DNA of 64,000 bases, taken from positions 13,401,926 to 13,465,925 of the forward strand of contig NC_072802.1 in NCBI RefSeq assembly GCF_028583425.1, given 5' to 3'. The number at the start of each line of letters is the position of its first letter. Position 1 is the first letter of the stretch. Positions 3,371 to 41,716 of the stretch are shown in pieces. This DNA comes from Eublepharis macularius. Its lineage: Eukaryota; Chordata; Lepidosauria; Squamata; Eublepharidae. Made by a program: the position numbers and the translations under genes. A model generated the notes under the pieces. That model did no database searches. It was not told the DNA's origin and was given only the letters and a program-made list of their open reading frames with translations.

Positions 3371-3823
3371 CCTGTCGCGCCGGCTCCTCCATTCTTAGAC
3401 TTTACTCTCCACACACGGCCCCGCCCCTCAGCGGACGACGCGCCGCCTCGACTCCCTCCTCTCCCCCGCCCGCCGAGCGTCACGTGATGTTTTCGCCGTG
3501 GTGCCGCCGCGGCTGCCTGTGTGAGTGAGTGAGAGAGCGAGAGCCGCGCGGAGCCGAGGGCGGGCGGGCAAGCGGGCGAGAGCGGGACAGCCCGGCGCGC
3601 TCTGGCCGGCGGCGAGGGGGTGGCGCGCGGTCCGCCGGCCGGTCTGCGGCGGCCCGGCCGGCTGCCTCCCGGGAGGCTCCGCTCTCCTTCAGGCGCCAGC
3701 GCCGGCCCGGCGCCGAGAGAGTCCTGCGGCCACCCATGTCCAGCCGGGCCTGGAAGACCCTTCCGTTGTGAGGACGGCTTTCCCGCCTCGCAGGGCCCCC
3801 GGACCCTGCCCTGGGCCCCCAAG

Positions 3824-6800
3824 ATGGCGAGTGGGACGCTTCACCCGGGCGGGGAAGGTGACTGCCCGGCGCTGGACGAGAAGAACGAGGCTGCGACCAC
3901 CCCGACCGCCGGCGGAGGAGGCGCCAGCCAGGGGGGCAACGCTGCGTCCAGGCTTGCTGCCGGTGCACCTGCGGAGGAGGACCAGGAGCCGGCCGAGAGC
4001 TCCCCCTGCCCTCCCCCTCCTCAGCCTTCACATCCTCTGATGCTCCTGCTCAGGAGATCCCCCAGCACCTCCCTCTGCCTGGTCCAGGAGGAAGAGGCTG
4101 CCTTGCCCGTGGCAGTGCCTGTGGGACGGGGCGGGCCCGCCTCCTCTGGCCGAGGGGGCCCTTCTGTGCCTTCTGGACGGGGAGCCCCCCCTGCTCCATC
4201 AGTCGGTGTCACCACTGCATCCTTGGGAGACGACGTGAGGAAATGTGGCTACCTGCGGAAGCAGAAACACGGCCACAAGCGCTACTTCGTGCTGCGGGAG
4301 GAAACTCACCTGCTTGGCCCGGCCAGGTTGGAATACTACGACAGTGAGAAGAAGTTCAAGAGCAGCTTGAGGGCTGCAGCGGCTGGGAATGTGGCCCTCT
4401 GCTGCCCCCCTCCCAAACGGGTCATCCCTCTGTACCAGTGCTTCACCGTCAGCAGGAGGGCAGATGCCAAGCACAAACACATCATTGCCCTGTATACCAA
4501 GGATGAGTATTTTGCCATGGTGGCTGAGAATGAGGCAGAGCAGGAGGGCTGGTACCAGGCAATCAGTGAGCTTATGAGTCAGAGCAAGAGGGGGTTCGTG
4601 GAGCAGGACGACCAAGCAGATCAGCTGCTAGATGACGATGATGAGCATTATGGGACTGCTCTTAAACCGGGCACTGTGTTCAAGGAAGTCTGGCAAGTCA
4701 ATGTGAAGCCCAAGGGGCTTGGGCAGACAAAGAACTTGACTGGGGTGTACAGACTGTGCCTCTCTAGTAAGGCCATCCACCTTGTCAAACTGAATACTGA
4801 GGTACCTTCTGTCCACTTGCAGCTCATGAACATCCGTCGATGTGGGCATTCAGAAAATTTCTTCTTCATAGAGGTGGGCAGGTCTGCATCCATTGGGCCA
4901 GGGGAGCTGTGGATGCAGGTGGATGATTCAGTGGTTGCTCAGAACATGCACGAAACGTTTCTAGAAACCATGAAAGCTTTGAAAGCCTTTTCTGAGTTCA
5001 GACCTCGCAGCAAGAGCCAGTCATCTGGTGGTGGGAGCAGCACCAACCCCATTTCATTCATCACTACCAGGAGACACCTTGGCAACCTGCCACCCAGTCA
5101 GACTGGCTTACAGAGACGATCCAGAACTGAGAGTGTTACTGGGGGGACCCCTCCCACCACCAAGAGCAGTAGTGCTTATCGATTCAGAACTTCTAGTGAA
5201 GGGGAGGGTACGATGACCAGACCATTTAGGTCAGTGACTGGGAGTCTGATTCATTTGAATACTGCACGGATGAATTTAGGGCGGCAAGAAGGGAGTGGCC
5301 GATATGTTAGAGCAGCATTTAGCTCTTCCTACCATGCCAGGTCTGCCTCTCTGCCAGTATCGCATTTCCCTTCCACCACCAGCCCCATCAGCGTTTCTTC
5401 AAGTAGTGGCCATGGATCTGCTTCAGATACTCTTGTAAGGCCTTCTAGTTCATCTGTCTGTGGTTCCCCGAGTGATGGAGGCTTTATCTCTTCAGATGAA
5501 TATGGTTCCAGCCCTGGAGACTTCCGATACTTCCGTGTGAGGAGTAATACTCCAGATTCCTTGGGTAATACGCCACCCATTAGAGAGGAAAACTGTTTAA
5601 GTGAATACATGTCCATGAGCAAACAGCAACTGGATAATAGCTCAAGAGATGATTTCCGGGAGGCTGAAAAATGCATTAGAAAAAGAACTTACTCTTTAAC
5701 AAAACCTGTTTCTACACCAGTGCAACAGAAAACAACCCAAACTGCAGCGTCTTTAGATGAGGATTCTGTCGGGAGCCACGGACATTTGCCTTGTTCTGAA
5801 TCGCCAAAACTTAAAGATAGTCCTGATCCAGAGTATGGAGAGTCTGCCCTTGATTCTGCATGTAATCAAAACAGGAATAAAGCCAGAGACGATGGCTACA
5901 TGCCAATGATGCCGGGAGTTGCATCTTCTCTTGCAAGCAGCAATGATTATCTGCCAATGACTCCTAAAACTGCATCAGTTCCAAAACAGATAAACAATTC
6001 TTGGTCATCATCTCAGGCTGACTCCAGAGGGTACATGATGATGTTTCCTAGGGCTATCTCTTCACCTGTACGAAGCCCTTTAACTGGATTTAATTCTAAA
6101 AGTGGAACTGACAAGCTGGCAAATAATGAGTATATGGATATGTCACCTGGAAATTCATCTGTTCCAAAGCCATCAAATGATTCAAATTATATGCATACCA
6201 GTGCTAGTTCAAAAGGGTTTGGCTCTTATTTTTCCCTCCCAAGAAGCTTTAAGACTCTATCGGGACAAAATGGTGAACATAATGAATATGTTCCAATGTC
6301 ATCACCTGGGAAACTACTGTACAGTGGATCTGAAAATGGTAAAAACGCTAGTAGTGAAATTCTGACTAATGGTCTTTCCAAGTCATCTATCATAAAAGCT
6401 TCAGATGAAGGCCTTGCACAGAACAGAGTTACCAGGCCTACAAGACTTCCACTGGGTACTAGAGGTAGTAACACTATACCAAGAATGTATGATCGTACAA
6501 TTCCACTTGAGCCATCAAGTCCTGGTGAATATATAAATATAGACTTTGGTGAAAAAGCAAGTAATACACCATACTCTTTATCTGCAGAAGGATCTCCATC
6601 ATCTCTTGGCTCCAGTAGTGACCACAGGCAGTCTCCACTTTCTGACTACATGAGTGTTGATCTTGATGTTCAGTCACCAAAAGCAGCAAAAGAACTATCT
6701 AGTTCCTTAACAGATATTTCTGTTTATGCCAGCTCGAGTATCCCTAGAAACCAGCCTGATTCAGATTATGCTAGGCTCTCATTTGGTGCTGCTTGTATTA

Positions 6801-7399
6801 GTGCAGCAAGTGGTAGGATTGATGACTACACTGAGATGACCTTCAACATGGCAGCAACACCACCTGGACCATTTGCCACAGAAAGCAAAAATGGCTTGAA
6901 GATGGATAGTCCTCCTTCCATAGTTAATCGATTGTGCATTGTTGACCAATATGCTGGTAACAGTGATTTCTCTGTTCCTAGCCCTGAACTTCCAGTGGTC
7001 CCTAAAGTCATTCGTGCTGACCCACAAGGAAGGAGGCGGCATAGCTCTGAAACATTTTCTTCTGCTGGCACTGTTACCACTTCCTCTTCTTTCTTTACTG
7101 ACAGCAGTAAAAGACACAGCTCTGCCTCTTTTGACAATGTGTGGTTGAAACCTGAAGAACACATTTCAGATGGCCATGAAAGCAAGATGTCCAGAGATAC
7201 TTCAACTGGATTTCAGAATGGCTTAAATTATATAGCTCTGAATTTACGAGAGAATTCTCTAAACTGTGAGCAGAGCCCTAGCACACCGAATTGTCACCTC
7301 TCAAACGGTACTTTGAATCTGGAAAGTGGAGTATATGTAAGCATAGACTTCAGCAGATCAGATGGTCTCAAATGCAACACTGCAAGAAAAGGTTTGTAA
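3824..7399 (+). CDS. IRS4: Insulin receptor substrate 4 (main coding exon)
   Basis: This is a docking protein that links insulin/IGF-type receptors to PI3-kinase and GRB2 at the inner membrane. ATG at 3824 (AAGATGG context, product starting MASG as in mammalian IRS4) is the first ATG in this frame; codons upstream to 3620 have no ATG. The PH domain is about residues 136-252 (CGYLRKQKHGHKRYFVL...EYFAMVAENEAEQEGWY). The PTB domain is about 285-390 (VWQVNVKPKGLG, RRCGHSENFFFIEVGRS, GELWMQVDD). The tail is Ser-rich with YXXM PI3K sites at Y595, Y692, Y709, Y737, Y770, Y822 and Y1002, a GRB2-type EYINIDF at Y903, and SHP2-type tyrosines at Y1136 and Y1171. YMMMFPR and SYFSLP are shared with IRS4. 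Read through, it is 1191 aa ending RKGL. If spliced at 7391|7392 to 29251 it is 1190 aa ending RKD. Human IRS4 is 1257 aa. The convergent COL4A5 neighbour supports IRS4 over IRS2. Confidence 0.93.
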   Translation: MASGTLHPGGEGDCPALDEKNEAATTPTAGGGGASQGGNAASRLAAGAPAEEDQEPAESSPCPPPPQPSHPLMLLLRRSPSTSLCLVQEEEAALPVAVPVGRGGPASSGRGGPSVPSGRGAPPAPSVGVTTASLGDDVRKCGYLRKQKHGHKRYFVLREETHLLGPARLEYYDSEKKFKSSLRAAAAGNVALCCPPPKRVIPLYQCFTVSRRADAKHKHIIALYTKDEYFAMVAENEAEQEGWYQAISELMSQSKRGFVEQDDQADQLLDDDDEHYGTALKPGTVFKEVWQVNVKPKGLGQTKNLTGVYRLCLSSKAIHLVKLNTEVPSVHLQLMNIRRCGHSENFFFIEVGRSASIGPGELWMQVDDSVVAQNMHETFLETMKALKAFSEFRPRSKSQSSGGGSSTNPISFITTRRHLGNLPPSQTGLQRRSRTESVTGGTPPTTKSSSAYRFRTSSEGEGTMTRPFRSVTGSLIHLNTARMNLGRQEGSGRYVRAAFSSSYHARSASLPVSHFPSTTSPISVSSSSGHGSASDTLVRPSSSSVCGSPSDGGFISSDEYGSSPGDFRYFRVRSNTPDSLGNTPPIREENCLSEYMSMSKQQLDNSSRDDFREAEKCIRKRTYSLTKPVSTPVQQKTTQTAASLDEDSVGSHGHLPCSESPKLKDSPDPEYGESALDSACNQNRNKARDDGYMPMMPGVASSLASSNDYLPMTPKTASVPKQINNSWSSSQADSRGYMMMFPRAISSPVRSPLTGFNSKSGTDKLANNEYMDMSPGNSSVPKPSNDSNYMHTSASSKGFGSYFSLPRSFKTLSGQNGEHNEYVPMSSPGKLLYSGSENGKNASSEILTNGLSKSSIIKASDEGLAQNRVTRPTRLPLGTRGSNTIPRMYDRTIPLEPSSPGEYINIDFGEKASNTPYSLSAEGSPSSLGSSSDHRQSPLSDYMSVDLDVQSPKAAKELSSSLTDISVYASSSIPRNQPDSDYARLSFGAACISAASGRIDDYTEMTFNMAATPPGPFATESKNGLKMDSPPSIVNRLCIVDQYAGNSDFSVPSPELPVVPKVIRADPQGRRRHSSETFSSAGTVTTSSSFFTDSSKRHSSASFDNVWLKPEEHISDGHESKMSRDTSTGFQNGLNYIALNLRENSLNCEQSPSTPNCHLSNGTLNLESGVYVSIDFSRSDGLKCNTARKGL
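7388..7397 (+). promoter_or_regulatory. IRS4: Splice donor inside the last codons of IRS4
   Basis: The sequence AAAAG|GTTTGT, with the cut after 7391, has G at +1 and +5 and T at +2 and +6. It interrupts a codon after its first base. Joined to the acceptor at 29250/29251 it gives GAC then TGA, so the C-terminus would be RKD-stop. Confidence 0.6.
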
Positions 7400-16262: not shown

Positions 16263-17664
16263 TTCAGATATGAGAATCCAGTTAATTAATGAAAGTGCTC
16301 TTTGACATGGCTTACATTGATGGAATACTTGACAGTCAGCAATTCAGTGTTTTCTTGAGGTGCTAGTCATGTGCAGAGTGCCTTAAAATCCTTAATTCAT
16401 CCTCATACTTTTACTGTTACACGATTCCTATTTTAGAGTGCTTAGAGCGATTTATCTGCCAGGTAATGACAGTTCCTTGTATGCATACATGTCTTCGAAG
16501 GCTAGCTGCCGCTTCTGCAAGGTCAGGGACTGGGAAGGTGTTGTTCCTAGCAGAGAGAAGCCGGTGGGCCTGAGGAGGGTGCTTAACCCTTCCATCACTT
16601 GTTGCTTCCCCCTCCTCTTCCCCTGACCTGGAGAAGAGTTTTGATAGGGAAAGCATCAGGCAAACCAAAGGTTAAGCAGCCACCTCTCGCCTGCCACTTC
16701 TGTGGGGGAAGTCACACCCTCTTGGCCCCATGTTGCCTTGGAGAAGTACTGAGCAGGTTTTGAAGGAATGGAAGTATGGTGGAAGTAGAAGAACTTTTTG
16801 CCCTGCAGCCGCCAGTGGAGTTCCATCTATTGGACTGCAGTGACAGCAGGAGAGTAACTGCTTCAGTAGGGCTGCTAAATATTTCACTATTTTGATACTA
16901 AGTGCAGAGCAGGTGTTGCTGTAGAGACAAGCAAGCTAGGCATTTCGATATATACTGGGAGGGATGGAATGTTGCTGGTGGTGTCGCGCAAGGGTTTCCA
17001 CCATAATGTGTGTACTTGCTGTCACTGGAGCTAGATAAATACTGGAACGGAGGAGGGGAGATGGGATGGGATTTTGATCAGTTGGTTGAACTGTGGACTG
17101 AGGACGTGACAGTCTTACCTTGGCCATTGATCAATAACAAATTGCAGCAGAACATTTTAAGGGGACAACAAGGCGGCGGCAGCAGCAGCAGCAAGACAGA
17201 CAAGGTAGGCGAGGGCATTTGCTGTAGTATCATATAGTCGCTCTGCATCGAGAGTAATAACTGCTTGGTGGGCCTGGGCTGTCTCTGGCTGTCTCTGGCT
17301 CTGCCTGTGCAGTCCTTTGCCTGCTGCAATGAATTTGCCATATTTTCCCTCTATGCACAGATTATCTCCTCTTTGGATCAAGTTGGGAGCCACTAGGTTA
17401 ATAATGATACTGAGGTGTCTGAAGTACAGTGGATGTGTGTTTCCGTGGATGTTGGTTAGTGATTCTGAAGTAAGGTTCTTAAAGGGTCCTGAGTAGCCGG
17501 TTGGAAGAGACGTGCTTCTGTTTGGGGAGGCTCCTGTTTCAGTGCAGTAAAGTGGGAGTCTGTACGGTATAATGCAGAACGTATGCATGATTCCTCTTGT
17601 CTTTGATTTTTCTTGGGGGGAGGGGAGGCAGGAAATAATGGAGATCAAGCACAGTTTGACTAGG
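16263..17664. other. No gene recognised; short CAG/GGC run
   Basis: There is a small trinucleotide run (GGCGGCAGCAGCAGCAGCA) at about 17172-17190. Otherwise no coding region or known repeat was recognised. Confidence 0.45.
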
Positions 17665-17677
17665 CATTCTCATGAAT
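17665..17677. repeat. Left 13-bp target-site duplication of the PLE palindrome
   Basis: CATTCTCATGAAT, identical to 20459-20471. Its last two bases overlap the outer end of the left arm. Confidence 0.8.
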
Positions 17678-17728
17678 GGTTGTTGGGGGTTTTCCGGGCT
17701 GTATTGCCGTGGTCTTGGCATTGTAGTT

Positions 17729-17769
17729 CCTGACGTTTCGCCAGCAGCTGTGGCTGGCATCTTCAGAGG
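17729..17769 (-). ncRNA. Minimal hammerhead ribozyme candidate in PLE tail (left arm)
   Basis: This is the exact mirror of 20334-20374: CUGAAGA at 17766-17760, GAAAC, then GUC ending at 17732 on the minus strand. The palindrome therefore holds two convergent copies of the same ribozyme motif. Confidence 0.6.
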
Positions 17770-17837
17770 TGTAGCACCAAAAGACAGAGATCTCTCAGTG
17801 TCACAGTGTGGAAAAGATGTAGGTCATTTGTATCTAC

Positions 17838-19060
17838 TCAGGAGGGGTGGGGTTGAGCTGAGTCATTCTGTAAGAGTTTCCCAGGGTGTGGAATGCTAAT
17901 GGCGGGAGGCTTCATTGTATCCTGAGGAGGTTCTTTTGCATATGGATTGGGGCTTGATGTGCTAATCTTCTCTGCAGGGCTATTGTCGGGTGTGGAGTGT
18001 TTTGTTGGCCTGGTGTTTTTCAGAACTGGAGCCCATGCTCTGTTCATTCTTAAGGTTTCTTCTTTCCTGTTGAAGTTTTGCTTATGCTTGTGAATTTCAA
18101 TGGCTTCCCTGTGCAGTCTGACAAAGTAGTTGGAAGTGTTGTCCAGTATTTTGGTGTCCTGGAATAAGATACTGTGCCCTGTTTGAGTTAGGCTATGTTC
18201 AGCCACTGCTGATTTTTCAGGTTGTCCAAGTCTGCAGTGTCTTTCATGTTCTTTTATTCTTGTCTGGATGCTCCGCTTTGTGGTCCCGATGTAAACTTGT
18301 CCACAGCTGCCGGGTATACGGTATACTCCTGCAGAGGTGAGGGGGTCTCTGCTGTCTTTTGCTGATCGTAGCATCTGTTGTATTTTTCGGGTGGGTCTGA
18401 ATACTGCTTGAAGGTTATGCTTTTTCATAAGCTTTCCCATCTGATCAGTAATTCCTTTGATATATGGCAAAAACACTTTTCCTGTAGGTGACTGTTTTTC
18501 CTTGGTTGTTTGATTCATCCTGGGTTTGATTGCTCTTCGGATTTCATTTCTGGAGTAGCCATTTGCCTGAAGTGCGTGGTTTAGATGATTAATTTCCTCA
18601 TTGAGAAAGCGCGGCTCACATATCCGTCTTGCACGATCCACTAATGTTTTCATTATGCCTCTTTTCTGTCGGGGGTGGTGGTTGGAGTTTTTGTGTAAGT
18701 ACCGATCAGTGTGAGTTGGTTTCCTGTAGACCTTGTGACCTAACTGAAAGTTTGCTTTGCGGATGACCAAGGTATCCAGGAATGAGAGTTTTCCCTCACT
18801 TTCTTTCTCCATTGTGAATTGTATGTTCAGGTGGATGTTGTTGAGATGATTCAAAAACTCCATCAATTCTTCCTCCCCATGGCTCCAAATGATGAATGTA
18901 TCATCCACAAACCGGAACCATACACTGGGTTTGTGGGGTGCTGATTCTAGAGCTGTTTTTTCAAAATGTTCCATGTAGAAGTTTGCTATAACTGGGCTGA
19001 GTGGGCTCCCCATGGCCACCCCATCCATCTGTTCATAGAATTCGTTGTCCCATTGGAAGT
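17838..19060 (-). CDS. PLE polyprotein fragment, left arm (RT C-terminal half plus GIY-YIG nuclease)
   Basis: The open frame of 396 codons from 19028 continues upstream in frame to the arm junction (FQWDNEFYEQ). RT motif B is GVAMGSPLSPVIANFYM. Motif C is RFVDDTFIIWS, with the catalytic DD present. The thumb and linker follow, then a GIY-YIG endonuclease with GVYRIPGSCGQVYIGTTKRS near residue 235 and HERHCRLGQ downstream. The N-terminal half of the RT is absent, so the copy is 5'-truncated. This arm reads Gly where the right arm reads the first Cys of CSCGQVYIG, a position usually Cys in PLE nucleases. PLEs insert by target-primed reverse transcription and are related to telomerase. The truncation makes this copy non-autonomous. 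Confidence 0.88.
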
Positions 19061-20265
19061 AATTCTATGAACAGATGGATGGGGTGGCCATGGGGAGCCC
19101 ACTCAGCCCAGTTATAGCAAACTTCTACATGGAACATTTTGAAAAAACAGCTCTAGAATCAGCACCCCACAAACCCAGTGTATGGTTCCGGTTTGTGGAT
19201 GATACATTCATCATTTGGAGCCATGGGGAGGAAGAATTGATGGAGTTTTTGAATCATCTCAACAACATCCACCTGAACATACAATTCACAATGGAGAAAG
19301 AAAGTGAGGGAAAACTCTCATTCCTGGATACCTTGGTCATCCGCAAAGCAAACTTTCAGTTAGGTCACAAGGTCTACAGGAAACCAACTCACACTGATCG
19401 GTACTTACACAAAAACTCCAACCACCACCCCCGACAGAAAAGAGGCATAATGAAAACATTAGTGGATCGTGCAAGACGGATATGTGAGCCGCGCTTTCTC
19501 AATGAGGAAATTAATCATCTAAACCACGCACTTCAGGCAAATGGCTACTCCAGAAATGAAATCCGAAGAGCAATCAAACCCAGGATGAATCAAACAACCA
19601 AGGAAAAACAGTCACCTACAGGAAAAGTGTTTTTGCCATATATCAAAGGAATTACTGATCAGATGGGAAAGCTTATGAAAAAGCATAACCTTCAAGCAGT
19701 ATTCAGACCCACCCGAAAAATACAACAGATGCTACGATCAGCAAAAGACAGCAGAGACCCCCTCACCTCTGCAGGAGTATACCGTATACCCTGCAGCTGT
19801 GGACAAGTTTACATCGGGACCACAAAGCGGAGCATCCAGACAAGAATAAAAGAACATGAAAGACACTGCAGACTTGGACAACCTGAAAAATCAGCAGTGG
19901 CTGAACATAGCCTAACTCAAACAGGGCACAGTATCTTATTCCAGGACACCAAAATACTGGACAACACTTCCAACTACTTTGTCAGACTGCACAGGGAAGC
20001 CATTGAAATTCACAAGCATAAGCAAAACTTCAACAGGAAAGAAGAAACCTTAAGAATGAACAGAGCATGGGCTCCAGTTCTGAAAAACACCAGGCCAACA
20101 AAACACTCCACACCCGACAATAGCCCTGCAGAGAAGATTAGCACATCAAGCCCCAATCCATATGCAAAAGAACCTCCTCAGGATACAATGAAGCCTCCCG
20201 CCATTAGCATTCCACACCCTGGGAAACTCTTACAGAATGACTCAGCTCAACCCCACCCCTCCTGA
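19061..20265 (+). CDS. PLE polyprotein fragment, right arm (RT C-terminal half plus GIY-YIG nuclease)
   Basis: This is a mirror copy of the left-arm ORF. The frame is open from the junction (EFYEQMDG) through 396 codons to the stop. It carries RT motif B (GVAMGSPLSPVIANFYM), the FVDDTFII catalytic box, and a GIY-YIG module with intact CSCGQVYIGTTKRS. The last 60 or so residues are Asn/Thr/Pro-rich (PTKHSTPDNSPAEK). It lacks the fingers and part of the palm of the RT. The two arms would transcribe into one RNA able to fold on itself over about 1.37 kb. Confidence 0.88.
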
Positions 20266-20333
20266 GTAGATACAAATGACCTACATCTTTTCCACACTGT
20301 GACACTGAGAGATCTCTGTCTTTTGGTGCTACA

Positions 20334-20374
20334 CCTCTGAAGATGCCAGCCACAGCTGCTGGCGAAACGTCAGG
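20334..20374 (+). ncRNA. Minimal hammerhead ribozyme candidate in PLE tail (right arm)
   Basis: CTGAAGA at 20337-20343 fits the CUGANGA core. Stem II is GCCAGC (20345-20350) with GCTGGC (20358-20363). GAAA follows at 20364-20367, then the two-base loop CG, then UC, with cleavage predicted after 20371. Stem I is CCT (20334-20336) with AGG (20372-20374), possibly extended further out by TTGG/CCAA. Hammerheads with very short stem III have been reported in Penelope-like elements, often acting as dimers. Confidence 0.65.
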
Positions 20375-20458
20375 AACTACAATGCCAAGACCACGGCAAT
20401 ACAGCCCGGAAAACCCCCAACAACCATCGTTCTCCGGCCGTGAAAGCCTTCGACAATA

Positions 20459-20471
20459 CATTCTCATGAAT
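20459..20471. repeat. Right 13-bp target-site duplication of the PLE palindrome
   Basis: CATTCTCATGAAT, identical to 17665-17677. It follows the 3' tail ending CTTCGACAATA. Confidence 0.8.
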
Positions 20472-21509
20472 CTCTCGTGACTTCCTGTGAAAATGGAGCA
20501 TACTTTTCGGAGACTGGCTCCATGTACCAAACATGGGATATTTTTTTTGTTTGTTTGTTTGGTTTTTTAAAAAAAATAAAAAAAATTGTTAAAAAAAACA
20601 TGGGATATTCACAAACAACTCGTTTGTACAAATAATTCAGACATTTGAACTAGTCCTTTGGTTGAATTAATGATCAGGTCCATCAGATCCATATAAGAAG
20701 GCTGCAACACTGCCTTAGGGTCGATGACAGTAATTTGTGCCTTTGTGTGGTTCTTTGCAGTTGGTAGCCCTCTGACATTTTATGGAAAATGGATTATAAA
20801 TGGTTGTGGGTATGGGGTAGAATCTTTAATGCATGGCAGCTGCCCAGTTCTTGAGGGAGTTGGTCATGATGTTGAGTGCATATGTCATCCTTTACAGTTC
20901 AATACCTGGGGCATTGCCTCCTTCCATATATACTGTTGTTGTCTCCAAAAAGATGACCAGTGGGATACTCCTTGATTTTTCACAGGCTGCTTCATTCGCT
21001 AATTATTTGACAGTTGGAGCCTGTGCACTCTAAGGAAGCCCTTGATTTTGGGGGCTGGCTTTTGTAGGCCAGAGTGAAGTGAATGTAGGCAGAAAAGGTG
21101 GCTGGTGCTGAAACTGGTCTCTGTTTTCTTATATGGGTGTGTGCACAGTATATGCTCTTTAAAAATGCTGTAGCCCACCCTGAGATGAGACTTAAGCGGT
21201 TTTACGCTCGACAGCAGCCTGCCTACATGTGCATCTTGGCTGACATCTCTGCATATGCATCCTTTGGTGGTGGTTCAGCATAATCTCAAAGTGCTTGTGT
21301 GAGATTGTGGTCAAGTAAGAACCAGATCTTAAAGAGAGGTGAGAATTTAAGAACAGACTAGGTTTGGTGGCGACAGTACCTTCTTGTTGACCAGAGAGAT
21401 GCAGTCTGTCTGGTGCACAGGGAATTTATGATTACTAAGGAGTGGTGGTGCAATGTTGCTCTCCTTTTTTTGCATTGCTTCCTTGCAATGAAGCAAAATT
21501 CAGCATCTG
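20472..21509. other. No gene recognised (DNA between PLE and L2 LINE)
   Basis: There are T-rich and A-rich runs near 20540-20600. No ORF beyond chance length and no named repeat. Confidence 0.45.
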
Positions 21510-22371
21510 TGTCTCCCTTGGCTGCTGCTGCCAAGGGAGCTGCTTCCATCAAGGGCTGGGCTTTCCATCTGCCCAGCCCCGCCCCTTGTTGCTCCAGCGT
21601 ACAAAGGTTGTTGTAGCCTGCACTGCTGCTGCTGCTGCTGCCAAGGGAGCTGCTTCCATCAAGGGCTGGGCTTTCCATCTGCCTGGCCCCGCCCCTTGTT
21701 GCTCCAGCCTACAAAGGTTGTTGTAGCCTGCACTGCTGCTGCTGCTGCTGCTGCCAAGGGAGCTGCTTCCATCAAGGGCTGGGCTTTCCATCTGCCCGGC
21801 CCCGCCCCTTGTTGCTCCAGCCTACAAAGGTTGTTGTAGCCTGCACTGCTGCTGCTGCCGCTGCTGCCAAGGGAGCTGCTTCCATCAAGGGCTGGGCTTT
21901 CCATCTGCCTGGCCCCGCCCCTTGTTGCTCCAGCCTACAAAGGTTGTTGTAGCCTGCACTGCTGCTGCTGCTGCTGCTGCCAAGGGAGCTGCTTCCATCA
22001 AGGGCTGGGCTTTCCATCTGCCCGGCCCCACCCCTTGTTGCTCCAGCCTACAAAGGTTATTGTAGCCTGCACTGCTGCTGCTGCCAAGGGAGCTGCTTCC
22101 ATCAAGGGCTGGGCTTTCCATCTGCCCGGCCCCGCCCCTTGTTGCTCCAGCCTACAAAGGTTGTTGTAGCCTGCACTGCTGCTGCTGCTGCTGCTGCCAA
22201 GGGAGCTGCTTCCATCAAGGGCTGGGCTTTCCATCTGCCCGGCCCCACCCCTTGTTGCTCCAGCCTACAAAGGTTGTTGTAGCCTGCACTGCTGCTGCTG
22301 CCAAGGGAGCTGCTTCCATCAAGGGCTGGGCTTTCCATCTGCCCGGCCCCGCCCCTTGTTGCTCCAGCCTA
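21510..22371 (+). repeat. Eight tandem promoter-like monomers with (CTG)n at the LINE 5' end
   Basis: The motif CCAAGGGAGCTGCTTCC starts at 21531, 21641, 21754, 21867, 21980, 22084, 22197 and 22301, giving periods of 110, 113, 113, 113, 104, 113 and 104 bp. Length differences are multiples of three and lie in the CTG run preceding each copy. Each monomer carries a GC box in the stretch GGCCCC(G/A)CCCC. The array abuts the LINE leader in the sense orientation, as promoter monomers do in rodent L1 5' UTRs. The promoter role is inferred. Confidence 0.75.
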
Positions 22372-22551
22372 TAAGACTGCTGCTAGGGGACTGCTCGCCT
22401 TGTTACTGTTTATTGTTTTTATACTATGTGTGTTAGTTACTGTAGTCTATGTTGTTAATTTGGTAGGGTATTGGGGTTTTGTGTATGTTTGATAGCTTAG
22501 TCTGTGATAGTTGGTGGGCTGTTGATTTTGTGAGGGTGGTGGGTTAGCACT
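22372..22551 (+). promoter_or_regulatory. Unique 5' leader of the L2 LINE
   Basis: Single-copy sequence of 180 bp between the last monomer and the first ATG of the long ORF. It holds no ORF1; the element appears to have a single ORF. Confidence 0.5.
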
Positions 22552-25506
22552 ATGTTCATTGGTGAGGAGGCCGGCTTGGGGTCGGGGATCCCAGTGATCC
22601 GGGGACGCGGGAGGTATGGTGGTGGGAGCAGATTATGGAAGGGAAGGGCATTGAGACATGGTAGGGCTCGGTGCCCTTCCAATCTGCGTCCCATCCCAAG
22701 ATATACCTGTTGTGGGGCTAGGATATTAAACCACTCTCCGACACTGGCACTGTGCAATGCCAGATCCATAAATAATAAGACCAAAACGCTGCAAGATTAT
22801 CTTGCAGCATTGAATGTGGACCTGGCTTGCGTGACCGAGACATGGGTGAGGGAGGGCGAGACGGTCGCTTTGAAAGAACTAGCCCCCCCAGGTTATACGG
22901 TCCTCCACCAGTCCTGGACAAGTGGTCGGGGGGGAGGCGTGGCTTTGCTCATTCGGGAGTCTTTCTCCTTCAGACCACTCCCCACCCCAAAAATTACTGG
23001 CATTGATTGTGTGGGCCTAGTGTTGGACGCCGAGGAGAGGTTGGCAATATGCGTGGTGTACCGACCGCCTACTGCACCTGCATCTTCCCTGTCTGGTCTC
23101 TTGGAGGCGGTGGCCAGCTGGGCCTTGGAATTCCCGAAACTTTTGGTTCTCGGGGATTTCAACGTCCATGCTGACGACGATGCCTCCATGCAGGCCATTG
23201 ACCTGGTGTCCTCCATGGCGGCCCTAGGACTCTCCCAGTTTGTTTCGGCTCCCACGCATCAAGCAGGTCACACGCTGGATTTGATTTTTGGGGCAGGGAT
23301 GATGGTGGTCCTGGATGCCTATGATGCAGTGCCATGGTCAGATCACTTTGTTCTGAAGGCTCGTCTGAGCATGCTGCTCCTTTCCCGGGTGGGCGGTGAG
23401 CGGATTTACGCTCGCCCGCGGAGGCTTATGGATCCAATTGGTTTCCAGGCGGCTCTGCGGGATCCGATGTCCCCTGGCAGTACGTTAGATGAGCTGGTGG
23501 ATGATTGGCATGGCCGTCTTTCCGAAGCCATCGACGCTATTGCCCCCTGCCGTCCTCTCCGAGCCCGCAAACGGGTAGCTCCTTGGTTTACCGAGGAGCT
23601 TCGCCAGATGAAGCGGTCTCTGAGACGACTAGAGCGAGTGTGGAGGCGGGGGCGCGACGAAGAGGCAAGAACATCTTATAGGACGTTTATGAAAGCCTAT
23701 GAGGTGGCAGTGAAAGCAGCAAAGAGGGATTTCTTTGCTGCTTCCATTGCATCCGCTAGCTCATGCCCAGCTCAATTATTTCAAACAGTTCGGTCCTTGG
23801 TCTCCCTCTCTCAGGGAGACCACCAAATTCTTAATTCAACTATTGGCTGCGAGGCTTTTGCGAGCTATTTTGCGGGTAAAACCTTGTCCCTTCGCCGTGG
23901 CCTGCCACCCACTGTTGATACAGTAAGGGAACTGGAGACCCCTTGGCCGTCTTCTGGGTCCGTATTAGACCATTTCAGCCTGCTCTCTCAGGACGATGTT
24001 GACAGGATCCTGCAGGGGATGAGGCCAACCACCTGTCCTCTGGACCCCTGCCCATCCTGGCTGGTGGAGGCCAGCTCAGAGGAGCTACGGGATCATCTGG
24101 AGGACATTGTTAACATCTCCCTGAGCTCTGGGGTTTTTCCAGGAGTGTTAAAGGAGGCGGTAGTGCGGCCCCTCCTGAAAAAACCATCTTTGGACCCCAC
24201 CGACCCGTCCAGTTACCGCCCAGTGTCGAACCTCCCGTTCCTGGGCAAGGTGATTGAGCGGGCGGTGGCGGTACAACTGCAGGAATTCCTGAATGATGCT
24301 CTAGTCCTGGACCCATTCCAGTCTGGCTTCCGTCCTGGCCATGGGACGGAGACAGCCTTGGTTGCCCTCACAGACGACCTTCGCAGGCATCTGGATCGAG
24401 GCGGGTCAGCGCTGCTTGTGTTACTTGATCTCACAGCAGCGTTTGACACGGTTGACTATGATTTGTTGGCCAGCCGCCTTGCCGACGTGGGGATTAGGGG
24501 GACAGTCTTACAGTGGCTGGTCTCCTTTCTCCAGGGTCGGGGACAGAGGGTGGCGCTCGGGGGAGATCTATCGGCCCGTCACCCTTTGGTGTGCGGGGTT
24601 CCCCAAGGGGCGATACTCTCCCCAATGTTATTTAACATCTATATGCGCCCCCTCGCCCAGTTGGTGCGGAGGTTTGGGCTGGGTTGTCATCAATACGCGG
24701 ATGACACCCAACTTTTTCTGTTGATGGACGGCCGGCCAGACACGGCCCCAGACAATCTGGCCAGAGCTTTGGAGGCTGTGACGGCATGGTTGAAACAGAG
24801 CAGGCTGAAATTGAACCCAGTGAAGACGGAGGTCCTGCAGCTGGGACGGGGGCTGCCAGATGTTGGGATCCAGCTCCCTGCCCTGGATGGGACACCACTG
24901 GCAACTTTGCCAGTGGTAAAGAGTCTGGGTGTGTTCCTGGATGCCAAGTCTGCATTTTTCCATCTTCGTCAGATCAGGCAACTTGCCCCCTACCTGACGC
25001 CCCAGGACCTGGCTACAGTGATCCATGCAACGGTCACCTCCAGGCTAGATTACTGTAACTCACTCTACGCTGGGCTACCCCTGGGCCTGATCCGGAAACT
25101 ACAACTGGTCCAGAATGCGGCGGCACGGGTCCTGACTGGTATACCTTACCAGTCACACATCACACCTGTCCTGCGCCAGCTGCACTGGCTTCCAGTTGAA
25201 TTCCGAATCAGGTTCAAAGTGTTGGTTCTTACCTTTAAAGCCCTGAGTGGGTTGGGACCAGCATATCTTCGGGACCGCCTCTCCCTGTACGTTCCCCGGA
25301 GATCGCTCCGATCAGCGAATAAATATTTACTTGTGGTCCCCGGCCCTAAGGAAGCCCGCCTGGCTTCAACCAGGGCCAGGGCTTTTTCAGTCCTGGCCCC
25401 AGCCTGGTGGAACGCTCTGTCAATGGAAACCCGGGCCCAGCGGGACATATTATCGTTCCGCCGGGCCTGTAAGACAGAGCTGTTCCGCCAGGCGTTTGGT
25501 GATTGA
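22552..25506 (+). CDS. L2-clade LINE ORF: AP endonuclease plus reverse transcriptase
   Basis: The 984-residue protein has no internal stop. The apurinic-type endonuclease spans about residues 62-270: LALCNARSINNKT at 65, TETWV, LGDFNVHADD around 201, and SDHF at 263-266, the terminal catalytic His motif. The reverse transcriptase spans about 530-800: SYRPVSNLPFLGKVIERAV, QSGFRPGHGTETAL, LDLTAAFDTVDYDLL near 630, GVPQGAILSPMLFNIYM, and the catalytic QYADDTQLFL with Y715. The C-terminal region (LDYCNSLYAGLP, VQNAAARVLTGIPYQSH, ITPVLRQLHWLPV) is typical of the L2 clade. Start choice: the first ATG after the monomer array. The intact catalytic motifs suggest a recently active source. It sits in the IRS4 intron in the sense direction. 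Confidence 0.9.
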   Translation: MFIGEEAGLGSGIPVIRGRGRYGGGSRLWKGRALRHGRARCPSNLRPIPRYTCCGARILNHSPTLALCNARSINNKTKTLQDYLAALNVDLACVTETWVREGETVALKELAPPGYTVLHQSWTSGRGGGVALLIRESFSFRPLPTPKITGIDCVGLVLDAEERLAICVVYRPPTAPASSLSGLLEAVASWALEFPKLLVLGDFNVHADDDASMQAIDLVSSMAALGLSQFVSAPTHQAGHTLDLIFGAGMMVVLDAYDAVPWSDHFVLKARLSMLLLSRVGGERIYARPRRLMDPIGFQAALRDPMSPGSTLDELVDDWHGRLSEAIDAIAPCRPLRARKRVAPWFTEELRQMKRSLRRLERVWRRGRDEEARTSYRTFMKAYEVAVKAAKRDFFAASIASASSCPAQLFQTVRSLVSLSQGDHQILNSTIGCEAFASYFAGKTLSLRRGLPPTVDTVRELETPWPSSGSVLDHFSLLSQDDVDRILQGMRPTTCPLDPCPSWLVEASSEELRDHLEDIVNISLSSGVFPGVLKEAVVRPLLKKPSLDPTDPSSYRPVSNLPFLGKVIERAVAVQLQEFLNDALVLDPFQSGFRPGHGTETALVALTDDLRRHLDRGGSALLVLLDLTAAFDTVDYDLLASRLADVGIRGTVLQWLVSFLQGRGQRVALGGDLSARHPLVCGVPQGAILSPMLFNIYMRPLAQLVRRFGLGCHQYADDTQLFLLMDGRPDTAPDNLARALEAVTAWLKQSRLKLNPVKTEVLQLGRGLPDVGIQLPALDGTPLATLPVVKSLGVFLDAKSAFFHLRQIRQLAPYLTPQDLATVIHATVTSRLDYCNSLYAGLPLGLIRKLQLVQNAAARVLTGIPYQSHITPVLRQLHWLPVEFRIRFKVLVLTFKALSGLGPAYLRDRLSLYVPRRSLRSANKYLLVVPGPKEARLASTRARAFSVLAPAWWNALSMETRAQRDILSFRRACKTELFRQAFGD

Positions 25507-40824: not shown

Positions 40825-41278
40825 GGCATGGCCTGACATTTTGGCATTTGGACACCCCGATGAAAATCGCAAATTTATTGTGCAGGTGGATGCGAGTGAT
40901 GTAGTGACTGGGGGAGGGGGTCATATTGCAAGAGGATGAGAATGGGAGATTACACCCTTGTGCTTACGTCTCAAAAAAAATTTCTGATGCACAGTGCCAC
41001 TGGGTGGTGTGGGATAAAGAGGCTTCTGCCATCAAATTGGCGTTAAGCACATGGAGGCATTGGCTAGAAGGGGCCAAGGGGCCTGTCGAGGTGTGGACAG
41101 ATCATAAGTATCTCGAGGCTTTACATACTCCCTGCAGGTTAGGGGCTAAACAACTGCGATGGGCTGAATTTTTCTCCAAGTTCAACTTTATGTTAAAACA
41201 TCTCCCAGGCAAATTCAATTTCCTTGTGGATGCCTTATCACGCCTACATCAACATGATAGCCAAAGGGAGGAAGTGGT

Positions 41279-41716
41279 CAGGGCCAGCACCACCATTGAG
41301 GCAGTGAGGCTGGCACCATGGGCACCGAAGGGGCTGCCAGAGGGGGTGCCGGCAGTGGAGGCATGCACCACGGAGCTGGCATGCCTGGCCTGCAGCTGCT
41401 GCAGCTGGCCAGCCCAGCCTTGTGCCGCCGCCACCGCTGCTGCCGCTGCAACCAACACACCACCGGCCAGGTGCAGCAGCCACGGGCCAGGCACGGCAGG
41501 CATTTGGGGCAGCATACGGAACTTCCCCAGCCAGCTGTTGTGCCCAACTGGGTGTGTCGGCAGCTTCTGCACACCATCCCAGCCACCCGCTGGCCAGTGG
41601 GGCTGGCTTGCTGCATGATGACATCATCACATAGTCGGGGGGGCATGCACATACGCACTATGTACGTGCGCACATAGGGGCAGCCACGGGCACTAGAAAC
41701 CCTGGCACCGCCCCTG
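41279..41716. mobile_element. hAT-type MITE (family G) inserted in the Gypsy fossil
   Basis: Ends are CAGGGCCAGCACC and CACCGCCCCTG, flanked by the 8-bp direct repeat GAAGTGGT (41271-41278 and 41717-41724). GC-rich, 438 bp, with no transposase. Confidence 0.8.

What the first reader, a model, noticed from the sequence alone, without database searches (positions are those of the whole stretch)
17665..20471. A Penelope-like element inserted as a 2.8-kb head-to-head palindrome with one target duplication
The two arms are 1367 bp each, equal in length and nearly identical. They are joined directly at their truncated 5' ends with 3' ends outward, and the 13-bp repeat CATTCTCATGAAT flanks the whole unit. 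Two independent insertions would not share one target duplication. L1-style twin priming inverts part of one copy but does not duplicate it. The simplest inference is bilateral target priming: each strand of a staggered break primed its own RNA template from the 3' end, and the two cDNAs joined head to head.
Basis: partly seen in the sequence, partly recalled or inferred. Interest (0 to 1): 0.85.

Follow-up and report, generated by a model that had tools for sequence, protein, structure and literature searches.

The report
Palindromic Penelope-like retrotransposon insertion
A jumping gene of the Penelope kind landed here as two mirror-image copies in one event, and most copies of its family that could be fully resolved in a sample from this genome look the same way, which suggests that both ends of the broken chromosome were used to copy its RNA.

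Summary
The palindrome is real: 1367-bp arms with one difference, an 18-nt central offset, one 13-bp target duplication around the whole. Each arm carries a 5'-truncated PLE frame. The junction is unique in the 2.24-Gb genome, but the architecture is usual for the family: about 50,300 PLE 3' ends, about 25,900 with the tail. In a tail-anchored sample, 47 of 47 head-to-head insertions with both outer ends resolved have exactly one tail. Arm lengths co-vary (25 of 42 within 15 nt; 10.0 expected). The no-tail arm is longer by 6 nt or more in 15 of 42, and 12 of 42 centres have 0-2 nt of spacer; both fit poorly with published self-priming (PMC3846280). In vitro, an Anolis PLE protein cleaves and extends both strands and starts at two sites that bound the tail (PMC11167929). 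Best reading: both 3' ends of a staggered break prime cDNA, one per start site, probably on one RNA, and the cDNA ends are joined. The structure is known; I found no published statement of this mechanism in the searches made.

The parts
17665..17677 (.). left copy of the target site duplication CATTCTCATGAAT (its last AT is shared with the element end)
   Evidence: exact repeat, only two copies in the window
17676..19062 (-). left arm: 5'-truncated PLE copy without tail, sense on the - strand, reference positions 444-1834
17841..19064 (-). open frame of the left arm, 408 codons: partial reverse transcriptase plus weak GIY-YIG-type (T5orf172) match
   Evidence: RVT_1 1.3e-07; T5orf172 0.02, below its cut-off
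18311..18311 (-). the only difference between the arms (partner 19792); makes Gly of a Cys codon in the left arm
   Evidence: translations
19043..19060 (-). 18-nt single-copy centre; belongs to the longer, left arm
   Evidence: upstream sequence of another copy, L035
19061..19062 (.). 2-nt overlap (AA) where the two arms meet
   Evidence: comparison with L035, which reads CAGTTACTTCC there; overlap 2
19061..20427 (+). right arm: 5'-truncated PLE copy, sense on the + strand, from reference position 464
19063..20262 (+). open frame of the right arm, 400 codons: partial reverse transcriptase plus weak GIY-YIG-type match
   Evidence: RVT_1 4.9e-07; T5orf172 0.066, below its cut-off
20428..20458 (+). 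31-nt tail, present on this arm only
   Evidence: (about 25,900 ends with this tail in the genome)
20459..20471 (.). right copy of the target site duplication

Best explanation
This is a single insertion of a GIY-YIG-type Penelope-like element. The element's enzyme cut both target strands with a stagger of about 10-13 nt, leaving 3' overhangs. Each overhang primed reverse transcription of the sense RNA at one of two adjacent internal start sites: one cDNA began at site 1 (no tail, left arm) and one at site 2, 31 nt further 3' (tail, right arm). Both ran to nearly the same 5' limit, most simply because they copied the same 5'-truncated RNA. The two cDNA 3' ends were then joined head to head over a 2-nt overlap by an end-joining repair process, and filling in the gaps made the single target duplication. 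Shown here: anatomy, single duplication, one-tail rule in the resolved sample, coupled arm lengths, junction statistics. Shown in print for a relative in vitro: cutting and extension of both strands, and two internal start sites. Inferred: the staggered ends as the primer pair, use of one RNA, and the joining step.
For: Architecture and duplication. One tail per insertion: 47 of 47 tail-anchored head-to-head insertions with both outer ends resolved (42; L030, L044, L049, L052, L060 by eye); 5 of 5 resolved among 12 distinct stretches chosen by 3' end without looking at tails, three of the five having been picked as close inverted pairs; genome counts 25,908 tail ends of 50,320 ends, 0.515 (the patterns differ in length). 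No-tail ends at 1832-1840 in 40 of 42, i.e. a fixed start; the filter only required 1812 or more and removed no row. Arms co-vary: within 15 nt in 25 of 42 against 10.0 in shuffles, none of 20,000 shuffles reaching it; with 10 insertions of shared or recurrent junction dropped, 21 of 32 against 8.3. No-tail arm longer by 6 nt or more in 15 of 42, so the tail arm cannot be its sole template. Central spacer 0-2 nt in 12 of 42, 14 of 47 and 30 of 50, too tight for one strand to fold on itself directly. Overlap at the 19 filler-free joins of 42 averages 1.68 against 0.63 expected; filler in the other 23, some of it copied element sequence by eye. Private junction once in each arm of L044 and nowhere else. 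Window arms differ at 1 of 1358 aligned sites; the nearest other sampled arm at 7. Tail-to-tail arrangement nearly absent: 5 places for one of the two main end variants, against 2,645 and 613 for two narrow head-to-head classes. The Anolis protein cleaves and extends both strands; the tail is the stretch between its two start sites (PMC11167929).
Against: No biochemistry on this family. In PMC11167929 start-site choice did not differ between strands, which does not by itself predict strictly one start of each kind. Fifteen of 42 insertions differ by more than 25 nt between arms, and inside the cluster of ends at 1695-1730 the correlation is weak (n 16, rho 0.35, p 0.18), so coupling is not complete. 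Arm identity adds little: closer than the best other insertion in only 5 of 43, equal or closer in 24. At least one head-to-head junction exists in about 990 copies and another in 25, so some palindromes seem to have been multiplied as palindromes; that does not apply to the window but shows a second route. The sample is tail-anchored and from one 14-Mb part of one contig; 18 of 67 tail-bearing rows were single-arm by score (5) or unresolved (13). Thirteen of 42 have no central perfect palindrome at all. Zero-spacer centres could also come from a trimmed hairpin.
Confidence: 0.7

Rival explanations
1. Self-priming: one cDNA folds back on its own 3' end and copies itself, giving a hairpin that is opened and replicated (the explanation proposed for A. 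vaga Penelope, there on an antisense template).
For: Near-equal arms and palindromic centres follow directly; proposed in PMC3846280. Sequence differences between arms are low.
Against: A no-tail first strand cannot template the tail, and a tail first strand cannot give a longer no-tail arm, yet the no-tail arm is longer by 6 nt or more in 15 of 42 and by 20 in the window. The window's central 18 nt belong to the no-tail arm. Spacers of 0-2 nt need loop trimming. The copy would have to stop at start site 1 nearly every time (40 of 42 at 1832-1840).
Confidence: 0.1
2. Hybrid: both target strands prime, but one cDNA is long and is copied back by fold-back or by annealing to the other, short cDNA, so that the body of one arm is DNA-templated.
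For: Explains tail asymmetry, coupled lengths and the private junction shared by both arms of L044.
Against: 0-2 nt spacers in a part; strongly unequal arms such as L035 (1 against 1254) and L024 (649 against 1677) would need fold-back loops of about 1 kb or more; in L049 each arm has sequence the other lacks, unless one later suffered a deletion.
Confidence: 0.15
3. The RNA template was itself palindromic, transcribed from an older head-to-head copy, and was reverse transcribed once.
For: One junction is present about 990 times and another 25 times, so palindromic units seem to have been multiplied in this genome.
Against: The window junction occurs once in the genome at up to 2 mismatches; there are 41 distinct texts among 47 junctions typed from the listing.
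Confidence: 0.03
4. Assembly artefact or a later inverted duplication of an ordinary insertion.
For: Palindromes are classic artefacts of long-read chimeras (recalled).
Against: Arms stop inside a target duplication with different flanks, differ at one base, and carry a tail on one side only; many similar insertions with varied junctions; orientation bias.
Confidence: 0.02

Closest known systems
Penelope elements of Adineta vaga, e.g. Pen2a_Av (PMC3846280; passages and the Discussion section seen)
   Different: Pen2a has a full-length ORF between direct pLTRs plus an adjacent inverted pLTR; here there are two long truncated arms of nearly equal length. Self-priming was inferred there; the family data here favour priming from both strands.
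PAc, the Poseidon PLE of Anolis carolinensis (PMC11167929; outline and the whole main-text section seen)
   Same: EN+ PLE; a tail that equals the stretch between two reverse-transcription start sites; protein cleaves and extends both strands of a target.
   Different: No sequence of PAc was available, so kinship at family level was not tested. The text read does not derive head-to-head insertions or a one-tail rule.
L1 twin priming (recalled, not looked up)
   Same: Both strands of one target break prime on the element RNA.
   Different: Twin priming splits one copy into an inverted and a direct part; here the same part is present twice.

Membership tests
GIY-YIG-bearing Penelope-like elements (EN+ PLEs) | reverse transcriptase domain | tested here: met
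   RVT_1 in both arms, 1.3e-07 and 4.9e-07, C-terminal part only because of 5' truncation; a PLE-type RT as against other RTs was not tested
GIY-YIG-bearing Penelope-like elements (EN+ PLEs) | C-terminal GIY-YIG endonuclease | tested here: inconclusive
   T5orf172 (a GIY-YIG-type family, recalled) at 0.02 and 0.066, below its cut-off; the frame reads GVYRIPCSCGQVYIG, which resembles the motif (recalled)
GIY-YIG-bearing Penelope-like elements (EN+ PLEs) | one single open frame holding RT then EN | tested here: inconclusive
   the RT match and the weak EN-type match lie in one frame of 408 and 400 codons, in that order; the EN part is not secure and the N-terminal part is missing by truncation
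GIY-YIG-bearing Penelope-like elements (EN+ PLEs) | short target duplication | tested here: met
   13 bp here; 33 of 43 rows, the window included, share 12-15 nt exactly, element-end overlap included
GIY-YIG-bearing Penelope-like elements (EN+ PLEs) | optional 30-40 bp tail at one 3' end | tested here: met
   31 nt at 20428-20458; 25,908 tail ends in the genome
GIY-YIG-bearing Penelope-like elements (EN+ PLEs) | tandem or pLTR organisation | tested here: met
   for the family, not the window copy: in L052 and L044 the sequence runs past the tail into further element sequence and then into a second copy of the 3' region
GIY-YIG-bearing Penelope-like elements (EN+ PLEs) | hammerhead ribozyme motif near the pLTR-ORF junction (reported in many PLEs, not strictly defining) | tested here: inconclusive
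   no hammerhead model among the matches at E up to 1 in 17000-21200 (no positive control); a CTGANGA-hairpin-GAAAC core (consensus recalled) lies in both arms, 17735-17766 - and 20337-20368 +, but the bare pattern is weak: 3 matches in the window against 1.13 by chance
Penelope/Poseidon clade within PLEs | phylogenetic placement of the RT | not tested
   no reference PLE proteins were on hand; solved structures gave three distant RT matches only

The most novel reading that the evidence does not exclude
EN+ PLEs insert by an obligatorily paired reaction: both 3' ends of one staggered break copy the same RNA molecule, one from each of two start sites 31 nt apart, and the two cDNA ends are sealed by end joining, so that a palindrome with one tail is the regular product and not an accident. 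The optional tail noted in earlier PLE work would then be the signature of which strand used which start.
Probability: 0.45. Interest if true: 0.75.

Novelty: new member of a known kind. Interest (0 to 1): 0.55.

Why it matters
How PLEs insert is an open question: PMC11167929 says that second-strand synthesis, repair and further steps are yet to be validated, and PMC3846280 offers self-priming. A genome with tens of thousands of PLE ends, a large share of them in head-to-head insertions, lets the rival routes be told apart by counting.

Tried and rejected
Rfam search of 17000-21200 gave eight matches, all to microRNA-precursor models that fit a long hairpin; none reached its gathering score. 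A DNA search of the own genome with the 3' end found nothing, although the window itself should match; the tool skips very common words, and the pattern search then found about 25,900, so that empty answer meant nothing. A simple fold-back was my first favourite because an AATT at the centre looked like a 4-nt priming site; comparison with another copy showed that only AA is shared and that the longer arm lacks the tail, so I dropped it. L052 and L069, which first looked two-tailed, run past one of the two tails into further element sequence; L052 is then an ordinary one-tail insertion and L069 stays unresolved. L013/L014/L023, L010/L016 and L001/L002 are copies of one another (same flanks or same structure); one of each was kept. 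No flank is shared among the 42 counted. Searches for a published account of bilateral priming in PLEs listed none in the held library; Craig et al. 2021 is not held and the older subscription papers did not appear in the listings, so absence from print is not claimed beyond these searches.

Full report
Observation. The region 17665-20471 holds an inverted repeat of 1367 nt per arm (17676-19042 and 19061-20427) with an 18-nt centre. Aligned arm to arm, there is one mismatch. The 13-mer CATTCTCATGAAT occurs at 17665 and 20459 and nowhere else in the window. The two arms carry open frames of 408 and 400 codons whose products match the C-terminal part of RVT_1 and, weakly and below the cut-off, the T5orf172 family. 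What it missed is an asymmetry at the outer ends: the right arm continues for 31 nt (20428-20458) before the target duplication; the left arm does not.

Host and abundance. The tail with its boundary (41 nt, up to 2 mismatches) occurs 13,004 + 12,904 times; the reversed control 0. The 3' end without the tail requirement (31 places, up to 2 mismatches) occurs 25,172 + 25,148 times; control 0. The ratio is 0.515, close to what is expected if an insertion has two 3' ends and one tail, though the two patterns differ in length and single-arm insertions exist.

Sample. I examined 70 fetched loci (L001-L070), the first places listed, all from about 1.3 to 15.2 Mb of one contig, by BLAST against one genomic copy (L035) extended by the window's 3' end. 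After removing four duplicates (L002, L014, L016, L023), the loci that had been fetched again with more flank (L011, L019, L026, L027) and the window, there were 67 rows for tail-bearing ends. Of these 67, 42 were complete head-to-head insertions with a partner arm reaching position 1812 or beyond and a target duplication by my score; none of the 42 partners reaches the tail, and the position filter removed no row. Twenty-five rows did not pass. Five loci among them (L030, L044, L049, L052, L060; seven rows) were resolved by eye as head-to-head with one tail and a duplication; five rows were single-arm with a duplication score of 9 or more, not checked by eye (L012, L021, L037 second copy, L051, L068); 13 rows stayed unresolved. 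Thus 47 of 47 head-to-head insertions with both outer ends resolved have exactly one tail. A second set of 16 short stretches was chosen from the listing by 3' end without looking at tails (three of them because two ends lay close together and inverted); 12 are distinct after removing copies. Five were resolved as head-to-head (L072, L073, L074, L077, L086) and all five have one tail; seven were not resolved, among them one tail-bearing and one tail-less end with no partner seen in the stretch.

Arm ends. The tail-less arm ends at reference positions 1832-1840 in 40 of 42 (others 1812, 1829), so it starts at a nearly fixed place. At the tail end the duplication begins 1-4 nt after CAATA in 31 of 43 rows, the window included. 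PMC11167929 (whole main-text section seen) reports for the Anolis element two adjacent internal start sites of reverse transcription whose spacing is the tail, cleavage of both target strands, and extension of both. The two outer ends of each palindrome therefore look like one start at each site.

Arm lengths. Let T and N be the inner ends of tail arm and no-tail arm. They differ by at most 15 nt in 25 of 42; shuffling partners gives 10.0 on average, and none of 20,000 shuffles reached 25. Many ends fall at 1695-1730, which alone makes some agreement; outside that cluster 11 of 26 agree, against 3.8, while inside it the correlation is not significant (n 16, rho 0.35, p 0.18). Dropping ten insertions whose junctions I know or suspect to be shared or recurrent (L008, L013, L020, L029, L039, L054, L061, L065, L066, L067) leaves 21 of 32 against 8.3, and 7 of 16 against 1.7 outside the cluster. 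Against strict coupling, 15 of 42 differ by more than 25 nt. The no-tail arm is the longer by at least 6 nt in 15 of 42, the tail arm in 9. In the window the no-tail arm is longer by 20.

What this says about fold-back. If one cDNA folded back and copied itself, the copy cannot contain what the template lacks. A tail-bearing second arm cannot be copied from a tail-less first arm, and a longer no-tail arm cannot be copied from a shorter tail arm. So simple self-priming (proposed in PMC3846280, Discussion section seen) fails for those 15 and for the window. Central spacers of 0-2 nt, in 12 of 42 (29 of the 42 have a central perfect palindrome), 14 of 47 typed junctions of one class and 30 of 50 of another, are too short for a hairpin unless it was trimmed. 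The second class contains the same junction text repeatedly, so those 50 are not all independent. A hybrid in which both strands prime and one arm is then copied from DNA remains possible.

Joining. The 19 filler-free joins of 42 overlap by 1.68 nt on average against 0.63 for random pairs (0.0006 of resamples as high; one value of 9 sits in a natural palindrome of the element); 23 of 42 joins have filler, several of it copied from nearby element sequence by eye. I read this as end joining of two 3' cDNA ends, of the kind attributed to polymerase theta (recalled; inference). The window join has a 2-nt overlap and no filler.

One RNA? Arms of one insertion differ less than arms of different insertions on average (38 of 43 rows; pooled 0.0117 within), but later gene conversion could do this, and short arms carry little information: strictly closer than the best other insertion in only 5 of 43, equal or closer in 24. 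Stronger is L044: its internal deletion junction occurs exactly twice in the genome at up to 1 mismatch, once in each arm of that insertion. That requires one template carrying the deletion, either one RNA or one cDNA copied by the other arm. In L049 each arm has sequence the other lacks, which speaks against copying between arms unless a later deletion is to blame. I put one shared RNA as likely, not shown.

Palindromic templates. The window junction is unique at up to 2 mismatches. But the junction of L066 and L067 occurs 490 + 500 times at up to 1 mismatch (control 1) and that of L039 25 times, at different places, so palindromes seem at times to have been multiplied as such; recurrence of the same join cannot be excluded for the second. 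How their left ends come to lie again at start site 1 is unexplained.

Orientation. Two narrow head-to-head classes have 2,645 and 613 exact places; the tail-to-tail arrangement with a gap of up to 30 nt has 5, tested for one of the two main end variants.

What is known and what is not. Head-to-head PLE insertions, one target duplication, palindromic junctions and a 31-bp tail on one inverted pLTR are in PMC3846280 (passages and Discussion seen). Inverted pLTRs and 3' extensions are mentioned in PMC8969392 (passages). So the structure is of a known kind. I found no statement of a one-tail rule or of bilateral priming for PLEs in the listings of searches or in the texts seen; the library lacks most subscription papers. 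The passages seen of PMC12910113 and PMC7599744 do not bear on the point.

Verdict.

Noticed in passing
L066, L067; genome-wide: A head-to-head PLE junction with a fixed filler occurs about 990 times: apparently a palindromic PLE derivative that multiplies as a unit, with ends again at start site 1 and tail.
   Followed up: partly
window 17735-17766 - and 20337-20368 +: A hammerhead-ribozyme-like core (CTGANGA, a GCCAGC/GCTGGC hairpin, GAAAC; consensus recalled) in both arms; no Rfam hammerhead match.
   Followed up: partly
window 3533-7399 +: Open frame of 1288 codons with PH and IRS-type PTB domains: an insulin-receptor-substrate-like gene in one exon.
   Followed up: no
window 21521-25506 +: A 990-codon frame with endonuclease and reverse transcriptase domains (LINE type), preceded by 7.7 copies of a 113-bp tandem repeat that may be its 5' region.
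   Followed up: no
window 40908-41618 +: Remnant frame with an RNase H domain of LTR-retrotransposon type.
   Followed up: no
L069 (about 1818) and L070 (about 185), C1 about 15.19-15.20 Mb: The same unusual junction (569 against 1784 with one extra base) appears in opposite orientation about 8.5 kb apart; perhaps a second-generation palindrome or a later inversion.
   Followed up: no
L030, L060: Insertions with repeated copies of a short stretch from position 1706 on between the arms, back and forth in L060, like template switching before sealing.
   Followed up: no
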